NCBI RefSeq assembly: GCF_000426625.1
Contig: NZ_KE384547.1
Coordinates: forward strand, 604,986 to 668,985
Source of the DNA: Psychrilyobacter atlanticus DSM 19335
GTDB lineage: Bacteria > Fusobacteriota > Fusobacteriia > Fusobacteriales > Fusobacteriaceae
DNA length: 64,000 nucleotides
Direction of reading: 5' to 3'
In this document: piece after piece, positions 35,997 through 44,060 of the stretch
How the letters are laid out: each line of letters starts with the position of its first letter
Position numbering within the stretch: the stretch's first letter is position 1
Notes under the pieces: generated by a model
The model's database searches: none
Seen by the model: only the letters and a program-made list of their open reading frames with translations
What the model was told of the DNA's origin: nothing
Made by a program: the position numbers and the translations under genes

Positions 35997-36302
35997 ATGA
36001 TTGCTAAAAAAGGTGACTGGGTAATGGTCTATAACATAGTATTAGAGCCAAAAGACAGAGCCCCTCAAATACCAGAGGATACTAAAAAAGTTCCATTGGA
36101 GATGTGGATAAAGGGATTTTTATTGGAAGATACTAGGGTAGGAGAAGTGGCAGAAATAGAAACAATAGTGGGAAGAAAAGTTAGTGGGAAATTGGTGGAA
36201 ATCCACCCTAATCATGAACACAACTATGGAAACCATGTACCTGAAATTTTACAGATAGGAAAAACCCTGAAGGAACTACTTTTTTGCGGGGAGGGGAAAT
36301 AA
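35997..36302 (+). CDS. ortA: 2-amino-4-oxopentanoate thiolase, alpha subunit
   Basis: OrtA is the small subunit of the PLP-dependent thiolase that cleaves 2-amino-4-oxopentanoate with CoA to alanine and acetyl-CoA. Features: AKKGDWVMVYNIVLEP, a LPLEMWIKG-like segment and NHEHNYGNHVPEILQIG, which resembles a His-rich subunit interface. The start is ATG 35997, 6 bp after GGGAGGG; the TTG at 35982 precedes the ribosome site. The stop overlaps the ortB start by one base (TAATG at 36300-36304), so the subunits are translationally coupled. 101 residues. Confidence 0.92.
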   Translation: MIAKKGDWVMVYNIVLEPKDRAPQIPEDTKKVPLEMWIKGFLLEDTRVGEVAEIETIVGRKVSGKLVEIHPNHEHNYGNHVPEILQIGKTLKELLFCGEGK

Positions 36303-37699
36303 TGGATAGAAGTTATAATGCTGTGATGTCTAGAAAGACAGAGATAATGAAAAAAGCTGTAGGAATAGACTATAATACCTTTGAGAAGGAAGGTATAGAA
36401 TTTGACTATGAAGCGATGATGAGAGAAGCTGGATATTCATTGGAAGAGATAAAAAAAATACAAGGTGAAACTGGAGTAGGAAATACTCCTATATATGAAC
36501 TTAGAAATTTAACTGATTTAGCCAGAAAAATAGCTCCAGCTGGAAAAGGAGCCAGAATTTTCTTAAAAGATGAGGCATCTAATCCCTCTGGAAGTTTTAA
36601 GGCTAGACGTGCTGCTACAGCAGTATATCATGCCAAAAAGCTGGGATATAAAGGAGTTATTGCTGCAACTTCTGGAAACTATGGAGCGGCAGTAGCATCT
36701 CAGGCAGCGATGTTGGGATTAAAATGTATAATAGTACAAGAGTGCTATGACAGTAATGGAAAAGGCCAGCCTGAAATTGTAGAAAAAGCCAGAAAGTGTG
36801 AGGCATATGGAGCTGAGGTAGTTCAATTGACTGTAGGGCCTGAACTATTTTATTCATTCTTAAATTTGTTGGAAGAAACAGGATACTTTAATGCTTCCCT
36901 TTATACACCTTTTGGTATTGCAGGGGTTGAGACTTTAGGTTCAGAGTTAGTGGAGCAGATAGTTGAAAAAACCGGTAAACAACCTGATGTAGTGGTATGT
37001 ACCAATGCAGGAGGAGGGAACCTTACAGGAACTGCTCGTGGGATTATAAAAGCAGGGGCAAAAGGTATAAAAGTAGTAGGAGCAAGTGTAAATTTAAAGG
37101 GACTGCACATGGCATCGGACAGTGATTTTAATAAGAAATCATTTACAACTGGACATACTGGATTTGGAATACCATTTACAACTAATCCAGACAGATCAGA
37201 TGTTCCTAGGTCGGCAGCGAGACCCCTTAGATATATGGATCGATATGTAACGATAACTCAGGGAGAAGTATTTTATATGACAGAATCTCTGGCTCAGTTA
37301 GAGGGACTAGAAAGAGGTCCAGCAGGAAATACATCTCTGGCAGCAGCTTTTTCCATAGCCCAAGAGATGGATAAAGATCAGATAATAGTAGTACAGGAAA
37401 CAGAATATACAGGTGCTGGGAAGCATATTCAACCACAGTTATCCTTTGCAAGGGATAATGGAATAGATCTACATTTTGGTAACCCAAGAGATGAAGTTCC
37501 TGGGAAGAGTATAATATTACCGGAACACCCAAAAATGATAAAAGCTATTGATTTAGATATGGATAAGATAAGAAAATCGTATATAAAAAATATGGTTAAC
37601 AAAAAATCTGACAGCAGACAATTTACTGATGAAGAACTGAGCTATATTGCCCTTGAGACAAACTTAACAGTAGAAGAAGTAAAAGGAAGATTAAAATAA
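36302..37699 (+). CDS. ortB: 2-amino-4-oxopentanoate thiolase, beta subunit
   Basis: OrtB is the PLP-carrying subunit of fold type II. The PLP lysine lies in NPSGSFKARRA (Lys100), followed by ATSGNYGAAVASQAAMLG and the phosphate-binding CTNAGGGNLTG. It works with OrtA in the cytoplasm to yield acetyl-CoA and alanine. The start is ATG 36302, behind GGGGAGGGG, and gives 465 residues. The C-terminal 22 residues (SDSRQFTDEELSYIALETNL...) have a decayed counterpart directly downstream. Confidence 0.94.
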   Translation: MDRSYNAVMSRKTEIMKKAVGIDYNTFEKEGIEFDYEAMMREAGYSLEEIKKIQGETGVGNTPIYELRNLTDLARKIAPAGKGARIFLKDEASNPSGSFKARRAATAVYHAKKLGYKGVIAATSGNYGAAVASQAAMLGLKCIIVQECYDSNGKGQPEIVEKARKCEAYGAEVVQLTVGPELFYSFLNLLEETGYFNASLYTPFGIAGVETLGSELVEQIVEKTGKQPDVVVCTNAGGGNLTGTARGIIKAGAKGIKVVGASVNLKGLHMASDSDFNKKSFTTGHTGFGIPFTTNPDRSDVPRSAARPLRYMDRYVTITQGEVFYMTESLAQLEGLERGPAGNTSLAAAFSIAQEMDKDQIIVVQETEYTGAGKHIQPQLSFARDNGIDLHFGNPRDEVPGKSIILPEHPKMIKAIDLDMDKIRKSYIKNMVNKKSDSRQFTDEELSYIALETNLTVEEVKGRLK

Positions 37700-37700
37700 A

Positions 37701-37787
37701 AACTATGTAAAAGAAGAAGATAAAGAAAATTCTGATAGCAGTGAATTTACTGCTGACGAACTCAATTATATTGCTCTTGAGACCAAA
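37701..37787 (+). pseudogene. Relic of a second ortB 3' end between ortB and rocF
   Basis: Reading 37701-37787 gives NYVKEEDKENSDSSEFTADELNY... and IALETK, which matches the ortB C-terminus (SDSRQFTDEELSYIALETN). Over 66 aligned bases I count 14 differences, many at third positions or giving conservative replacements. The relic therefore derives from a diverged ortB copy rather than a fresh duplication. It has no start codon and runs in frame into the rocF reading frame. It probably extends to about 37815, so the rocF ribosome site may derive from it. Confidence 0.75.
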
Positions 37788-37823
37788 ATGACAATAAATA
37801 AAAAAATTAAGGAGCTGAATATT

Positions 37824-38678
37824 TTGAAAACAAAAATAATAGGGGTACCATTAAATTTCGGAGCCAACAGGTGTGGTTTAGAATTTAGTATAAATAACTT
37901 TATAGATAAATATCCAAAATATAAAGATAAGATAGAAGTTTTAGAGGTAGAGAGACAGGAAGAAGATTTTTCCATAAAGGGAGCTAAATACCTGAATACA
38001 GTAGCAAAAACCTGTGAAGATTTAGCAGTAAAGGTAAATAAGACATTAAAAGATGGGAATTTTCCCATTAGTCTGGGAGGAGATCACGCTATAGCTATAG
38101 GAAGTATAGCTGGGGTGGCTAAGGAAAAAGAGATTGGTATATTATGGATGGATGCTCATGGAGACATGAATACCCCTGAGATAAGTGGGTCGGGGCATAT
38201 ACATGGGATGCCGTTAGCTACCTCTGTAGGACACGGACATTCTAAATTGATAGATTGTTTTTATAATGGAACTAAGGTAAAGAAAGAAGACGTAATCTTA
38301 TTTGGAACCAGAGATATAGATGAAAGGGAACAAAAATTGATCGATGAATTAGGGATTAAAAATTATACCTGGAAGATGATAGCAGAGATGGGATTTGAAA
38401 AAGCATTAGGTGAGGTAAAAGAATTTTTTAAAGGTAGAAACCTACATATCAGTTTTGACCTGGATGGGATAGATCCTGCAGAGATTACAGCTGTTGGGAC
38501 ACCTGTTGTAGGAGGACTCAGCCGTGAAATGGGGAAGATCTTGATATCGGAGATGATAGATACGGCATCTGTAACATCTATAGATATAGTGGAATATAAT
38601 CCAATATATGAAAAAGAGTCAGAAACTTCTGAATATGTAGATGAATTGCTCCAATTAATAGAAAAAAAGATAAATTAA
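37824..38678 (+). CDS. rocF: Arginase
   Basis: This ureohydrolase hydrolyses arginine to ornithine and urea and so feeds the ornithine pathway. Manganese ligands are visible: SLGGDHAIAIGS, MDAHGDMNT, the GHIHGMPLA loop, SFDLDGIDP and SIDIVEYNP. The start is probably TTG 37824, preceded by AAGGAG (37809-37814), because the protein then begins MKTKIIGVPLNFG like other arginases. The ATG at 37788 has no ribosome site and lies in the ortB relic. No urease is seen in the window, so urea is presumably excreted. Confidence 0.9.
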   Translation: MKTKIIGVPLNFGANRCGLEFSINNFIDKYPKYKDKIEVLEVERQEEDFSIKGAKYLNTVAKTCEDLAVKVNKTLKDGNFPISLGGDHAIAIGSIAGVAKEKEIGILWMDAHGDMNTPEISGSGHIHGMPLATSVGHGHSKLIDCFYNGTKVKKEDVILFGTRDIDEREQKLIDELGIKNYTWKMIAEMGFEKALGEVKEFFKGRNLHISFDLDGIDPAEITAVGTPVVGGLSREMGKILISEMIDTASVTSIDIVEYNPIYEKESETSEYVDELLQLIEKKIN

Positions 38679-38756: not shown

Positions 38757-39134
38757 ATGAAAGGATATTTAAAAAGAGAAGATGATTTCTCCACAAGAAG
38801 AAAACATCTGCATAATTTAACAGATGAAGAGTTAAAAAATAAATTTTGGGAGTTAGCAGAAAAATTAGTGGACCCAATGTTAGACCTGGCTAAAACCCAT
38901 ACTACACCATCAATTGAGAGATCAGTACTTCTCAGAATGGGGTTTTCAAGCATAGAAGCTAAGCCTTTGGTAGACGGAGCAATAGATAGAGGACTTATAG
39001 GAAAGGGTGTAGGTCACTTAGTATATAAAATATCAGAGGAAAAAAATATCTCTATTCGGCAGGCAGGGGAAGAGATGATAGAGGGAAACCACTGGGATAC
39101 CCTTATGGAAATCTTTAAGGGAGGTAAAAAATAA
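38757..39134 (+). CDS. oraS: D-ornithine 4,5-aminomutase, S subunit
   Basis: OraS is the small subunit of the B12- and PLP-dependent mutase that moves the terminal amino group of D-ornithine to carbon 4. The 125-residue sequence has the family's RREDDF-like start (KREDDFSTRRKHL), the helical ELWELAEKLVDPMLDLAKTHTTPSIERSVLLRMGFSS-type core (here FWELAEKLVDPMLDLAKTHT) and GHLVYKISEE. GGGGGG lies ahead of the ATG. Its stop overlaps the oraE start by one base, coupling the subunits. Confidence 0.94.
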   Translation: MKGYLKREDDFSTRRKHLHNLTDEELKNKFWELAEKLVDPMLDLAKTHTTPSIERSVLLRMGFSSIEAKPLVDGAIDRGLIGKGVGHLVYKISEEKNISIRQAGEEMIEGNHWDTLMEIFKGGKK

Positions 39135-43965: not shown

Positions 43966-44060
43966 ATTTGACAAAGTTAATAAATTATTATAGAATAACT
44001 CTCAGAAAAGAAAAATTTAGATAGAGGTTGCAAATATTAAAGAGTAATTTTAGGCTAGTT

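What the first reader, a model, noticed from the sequence alone, without database searches (positions are those of the whole stretch)
37701..37823. Relic of a diverged ortB 3' end between ortB and arginase
The spacer between ortB and rocF encodes a 22-residue match to the ortB C-terminus, with 14 differences in 66 bases by my count, mostly synonymous or conservative. It lacks a start codon and reads into the rocF frame. This is best explained by a former second ortB, or by recombination with another ortB-containing cluster that brought rocF in. rocF then splits the otherwise adjacent ort and ora genes.
Basis: seen in the sequence. Interest (0 to 1): 0.65.

Follow-up and report, generated by a model that had tools for sequence, protein, structure and literature searches.

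The report
Old partial ortB duplicate before arginase
Between two genes of an ornithine-degradation cluster lies a 124-base leftover copy of the end of the first gene, made once in the ancestor of this bacterial genus; it is a small scar, but half of it has changed so little that it may now serve as a regulatory sequence.

Summary
The same relic lies at the same place in all four genus members with ortB available. The relics form one group and the ortBs another, so it arose once before these species split. It matches the genus's own ortB far better than any ortB from elsewhere that I held.

Simplest reading: a partial tandem duplication of the ortB 3′ end. Nothing requires a former full-length second ortB. 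Recombination that "brought rocF in" is not supported: Propionigenium maris has a sister rocF at the same site without a relic. rocF does split ortB from oraS as a derived order; direct adjacency is the rule elsewhere.

One unexpected result: the alignable relic is not decaying neutrally (6/60 variable columns against 141/309 four-fold sites), although indels break its reading frame. The constrained core holds an invariant promoter-like site on the opposite strand (TTGTCA–18–TATAAT), which the ortB copy lacks. Reuse as a cis-element is possible but unproven; other window spacers are equally conserved.

The parts
36302..37699 (+). ortB, 2-amino-4-oxopentanoate thiolase subunit; source of the relic (its last ~40 codons, 37580-37699)
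   Evidence: NCBIfam NF040741, 849.7 bits against cutoff 550; repeat
37704..37805 (+). relic: degenerate tandem copy of the ortB 3' end
   Evidence: present in G007, G002, G004
37759..37796 (.). constrained core of the relic, one variable column in four species
37765..37794 (-). antisense promoter-like site TTGTCA-18-TATAAT (11/12), identical hexamers in all four species, absent from the ortB copy
   Evidence: consensus match only, no transcription data
37810..37814 (+). AGGAG ribosome-binding site of rocF
   Evidence: sequence, conserved in the four species
37824..38678 (+). rocF, arginase (TTG start), metal-ligand motifs GGDHA, DAHGDMN, FDLDGIDP intact
   Evidence: Pfam PF00491 E 7.7e-56; TIGR01229 220.4 bits, just under cutoff 227.6; solved arginases
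38757..39134 (+). oraS, D-ornithine aminomutase small subunit; directly follows ortB in most genomes
   Evidence: position next to oraE (NF040743); gene order; no NCBIfam hit of its own

Best explanation
In the common ancestor of the four genus members carrying the cluster, a segment of about 124 bp (the last ~40 codons of ortB, its stop and a few bases) was duplicated in tandem. The upstream copy remains the functional end of ortB. The downstream copy, between ortB and the rocF ribosome-binding site, became non-coding: it has no start codon, and different lineages acquired different indels. Shown: homology, tandem layout, single origin, loss of frame. Inferred: the mechanism (slippage or illegitimate recombination) and that rocF was already in place. 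Its 3′ half, next to the rocF ribosome-binding site, has since been kept nearly unchanged, most likely because it serves as DNA or RNA sequence (rocF leader or an antisense promoter) rather than as a peptide; which of these is not shown.
For: Tandem 93-nt repeat at 124-nt spacing, far above shuffles. Orthologous relics in G007, G002 and G004; in G002 and G004 the relic keeps an ortB-frame stop (TIDVVK*), so the copy once ran to the ortB terminus. In a 42-nt core, relics agree with each other at 38–42 sites, ortBs with each other at 37–42, relic with ortB at only 31–34: one old event. Best matches among 87 ortB tails are the genus's own (protein 86–96, next 56); the relic peptide matches nothing outside the genus in 98 Fusobacteriota genomes. 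Indels: about 33 nt missing in G002/G004, 12 nt in G000/G007, 5 nt between G002 and G004, which puts the relic in different frames. Constraint: 6/60 variable columns against 141/309 four-fold sites (Fisher 4.5e-8) and 35/68 in the next spacer. P. maris has rocF at the same place without a relic and its rocF is the sister (97/95).
Against: The relic is not free of constraint, as a dead fragment should be. Exact duplication ends cannot be read after this much divergence. Only four species have it. The ortB tree groups this genus with Spirochaetota (99/93) while oraE groups within Fusobacteriota (99/95), so some recombination at ortB cannot be excluded, although the AU test does not reject a Fusobacteriota ortB clade (p 0.195). 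A second partial cluster copy in G002 and G003 leaves room for exchange between clusters.
Confidence: 0.72

Rival explanations
1. Remnant of a complete second ortB that stood between ortB and rocF and lost all but its 3' end by deletion.
For: The relic runs to an ortB-type stop in G002 and G004. Whole-cluster duplication with large deletions did happen in this genus: G002 and G003 carry alr'-rocF'-rac', with alr-ord spacer and GlmL-like 3' remnants in G003.
Against: No trace of ortB upstream of the last ~40 codons in any of the four species; the second cluster lies elsewhere (upstream of alr in G002) and does not place an ortB' next to ortB. Needs a full duplication plus a precise deletion where one small duplication suffices.
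Confidence: 0.13
2. Joint of a recombination with another ort cluster that brought rocF in together with the donor's ortB 3' end.
For: rocF between ortB and oraS is rare and derived. The ortB and oraE trees disagree about the genus's neighbours.
Against: The relic matches the genus's own ortB, no donor. P. maris has the sister rocF at the same site with a short relic-free spacer, so rocF placement probably predates the relic. The ortB incongruence is not significant by the AU test.
Confidence: 0.08
3. The relic core has been taken over as a cis-regulatory element: an antisense promoter firing back into ortB, or part of the rocF leader RNA. (Compatible with the best explanation of its origin; a rival only to the view that it is inert.)
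For: Constraint in all four species. Promoter hexamers TTGTCA/TATAAT invariant, 11/12, only 8 such sites in the 64-kb window, shuffle frequency 0-0.01, ortB copy scores at most 8/12. In this genome the core can pair with the rocF ribosome-binding site.
Against: Other spacers in the window are as conserved (0.85-0.99), so this is not exceptional. Ribosome-site occlusion is absent in G002 and G004, there is no covariation and no Rfam match. The promoter was found after the fact by a consensus scan.
Confidence: 0.2
4. A conserved, translated small peptide or N-terminal extension of RocF.
For: The frame is open into rocF in G000 and G007.
Against: A stop separates the relic from rocF in G002 and G004; the upstream frame differs between species; no shared start codon.
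Confidence: 0.03

Closest known systems
Partial tandem gene duplication leaving a truncated pseudogene fragment
   Same: Head-to-tail copy of a gene end, no start codon, frame broken in some lineages.
   Different: Half of the fragment is more conserved than synonymous sites, which a dead fragment should not be.
ord-ortA-ortB-oraS-oraE-orr ornithine oxidative degradation cluster (pathway as in Clostridioides difficile, PMC8803604)
   Same: Same pathway genes, in the order seen in most of the ortB loci compared here.
   Different: An arginase gene with an ortB-derived spacer sits between ortB and oraS, here and (without the relic) in Propionigenium maris.
Fusobacterial ornithine decarboxylase-arginase fusion (PMC8503589)
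   Same: Its arginase domain is the next relative of the cluster rocF after P. maris.
   Different: The cluster rocF stands alone and keeps the metal ligands; the paper reports two critical aspartates replaced in the F. nucleatum fusion.

Membership tests
Truncated duplicate (pseudogene fragment) of ortB | Significant similarity to part of the parent gene | tested here: met
Truncated duplicate (pseudogene fragment) of ortB | Closest relative is the local parent lineage | tested here: met
Truncated duplicate (pseudogene fragment) of ortB | No conserved reading frame or start | tested here: met
Truncated duplicate (pseudogene fragment) of ortB | Evolves at the neutral rate (expected of an inert fragment) | tested here: not met
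   6/60 variable columns against 141/309 four-fold sites; so it is filed as a duplicate fragment by descent, not as inert
Horizontally acquired rocF with donor ortB end | Relic closer to a donor ortB than to the local ortB | tested here: not met
Horizontally acquired rocF with donor ortB end | rocF insertion and relic appear together | tested here: not met
   P. maris has rocF at the site without a relic
Antisense promoter or cis-regulatory element | Conserved promoter hexamers | tested here: met
Antisense promoter or cis-regulatory element | Transcription start from it | not testable with these tools
   no expression data held
Structured regulatory RNA | Covarying or known RNA structure | tested here: not met
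   no Rfam match, no covariation, occlusion in two of four species only

The most novel reading that the evidence does not exclude
A duplicated piece of coding sequence inside a catabolic operon has been turned into a regulatory element, with point changes creating a near-consensus antisense promoter that fires back into the parent gene ortB and is kept by selection across the genus.
Probability: 0.15. Interest if true: 0.5.

Novelty: new member of a known kind. Interest (0 to 1): 0.24.

Why it matters
As a relic it is a minor record of operon evolution. Its use is as a dated scar: it marks a single event in the genus ancestor, and relic-free Propionigenium maris suggests that the arginase gene joined the ornithine cluster first. 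If the constrained half proves to be a promoter or leader, it would be a clean case of a coding fragment reused as regulatory DNA next to its parent gene. The arginase insertion makes metabolic sense (arginine to ornithine), as inference.

Tried and rejected
Ribosome-site sequestration by the relic: occlusion stronger than shuffles in G000 and G007 (0.03–0.05) but not in G002 and G004. Conserved RNA structure: all predicted pairs invariant, no covariation; Rfam empty. Palindrome AGCAGT-N6-ACTGCT as an operator: a single site in the genome, deleted in G002 and G004. Intrinsic terminator: none found. Conserved peptide: stops and frame changes. Relic as remnant of a P. maris-like or other fusobacterial ortB: no similarity comparable to the genus's own ortB. 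Spirochaete origin of ortB: favoured by the tree, not significant by AU. A first alignment was useless because three loci were on the other strand; one G002–G004 comparison was run in the wrong orientation and redone.

Full report
Observation. Between ortB (36302–37699) and rocF (TTG at 37824) the window carries a second, degenerate copy of the ortB 3′ end. The repeat search pairs 37580–37672 with 37704–37796 at 74% identity and 124-nt spacing. Its alignment score of 70 stands against 23.1 ± 2.9 (max 39) for dinucleotide shuffles, and the translated score of 88 against 28.8 ± 4.7 (max 50).

Setting. NCBIfam names ord, ortA, ortB, oraE, a GlmL-related protein and ornithine racemase around it, with alr upstream. 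RocF matches the arginase family (PF00491) and solved arginases. It keeps the metal-ligand motifs and scores just under the TIGR01229 cutoff (220.4 against 227.6). oraS is named from its place before oraE.

Distribution. Among 98 Fusobacteriota genomes only seven have ortB: four in this genus, plus Fusobacterium gastrosuis, Propionigenium maris and one more (names by matching records). All four genus members have ortB–relic–rocF. In the 80 best ortB loci of the genome collection, rocF lies between ortB and oraS only in a genus member (L043, the same as G004) and in P. maris (L101); in the others where the next gene can be read, oraS follows directly.

Origin. In a 42-nt core shared by all copies, relics agree with each other at 38–42 sites, ortBs with each other at 37–42, and relics with ortBs at 31–34. 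The duplication therefore predates the split of the four species and happened once. Against 87 ortB tails the best protein scores are the genus's own (86–96), and the next best is 56. The relic peptide finds nothing outside the genus in the phylum. So the relic comes from the genus's own ortB lineage. In G002 and G004 it ends in an ortB-frame stop, 12 bases earlier than in ortB, consistent with a deletion between TAAAA repeats. These points fit a partial tandem duplication of about 124 bp.

rocF. In a tree with clostridial arginases as outgroup and fusobacterial decarboxylase–arginase fusions, the genus's rocF is sister to P. maris rocF (97/95), and grouping it with the fusions instead is rejected (p-AU 0.023). 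Both sit at the same site, but the P. maris spacer is relic-free. The relic is most simply later than the rocF insertion, although loss in P. maris or transfer of the cluster cannot be excluded.

Incongruence. The ortB tree places the genus beside Spirochaetota (99/93), whereas oraE places it among Fusobacteriota (99/95) and ord beside another Fusobacteriota genome (99/97). A Fusobacteriota ortB clade is not rejected (AU p 0.195). I treat ortB replacement as an open lead, not a result.

Constraint. The relic is frame-broken yet slow. Identity in ungapped columns is 97% for G000–G007 (four-fold sites 81%), 89% for G000–G002 (68%) and 99% for G002–G004 (75%). Across four species 6 of 60 relic columns vary against 141 of 309 four-fold sites (Fisher p 4.5e-8) and 35 of 68 in the rocF–oraS spacer. 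Two cautions apply: gapped columns are left out, which favours conserved parts, and several other spacers in the window reach 0.85–0.99 between G000 and G002. The spacer is therefore constrained but not exceptional.

What might be constrained. The slow core (37759–37796) holds on the minus strand TTGTCA–18–TATAAT, 11 of 12 to consensus, with identical hexamers in all four species. The ortB copy reaches at most 8 of 12, and the 64-kb window has only eight sites this good. It points back into ortB. Pairing of the core with the rocF ribosome-binding site exceeds shuffles in only two of the four species. I found no expression data, so this stays a hypothesis.

Verdict. The relic reading is right, its proposed origins are not needed or not supported, and the residue of interest is the constraint on the 3′ half.

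Noticed in passing
L124 (G002:C1:97000-116000), L129 (G003:C41), L130 (G003:C46): G002 and G003 carry a second, reduced cluster alr'-rocF'-rac' that keeps the arginase; in G003 it retains alr-ord spacer and the 3' end of the GlmL-like gene, remnants of a whole-cluster duplication with large internal deletions.
   Followed up: partly
window 36302-37699: ortB of this genus groups with Spirochaetota ortB (99/93) while oraE and ord group with Fusobacteriota; possible ortB replacement, not significant by AU test.
   Followed up: partly
L037 and similar fusobacterial loci: Arginase domain fused to an Orn/Lys/Arg decarboxylase (about 790 aa), widespread in Fusobacteriaceae; the fusion is described in PMC8503589 with an arginase domain thought inactive.
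   Followed up: partly
window 37788-38678: The 296-aa ORF starting at ATG 37788 reads into rocF through the relic frame; an automatic gene call there would give RocF a false N-terminus. TTG 37824 with AGGAG is the conserved start.
   Followed up: yes
window 43966-44027: The spacer after the racemase gene is very conserved (0.98 and 0.94 to G007 and G002), with a near-consensus sense promoter (TTGACA-17-TAGAAT at 43968), probably driving the downstream transporter.
   Followed up: no
window 37737-37754: Inverted repeat AGCAGT-N6-ACTGCT inside the relic, the only such site in the genome, deleted in G002 and G004.
   Followed up: partly
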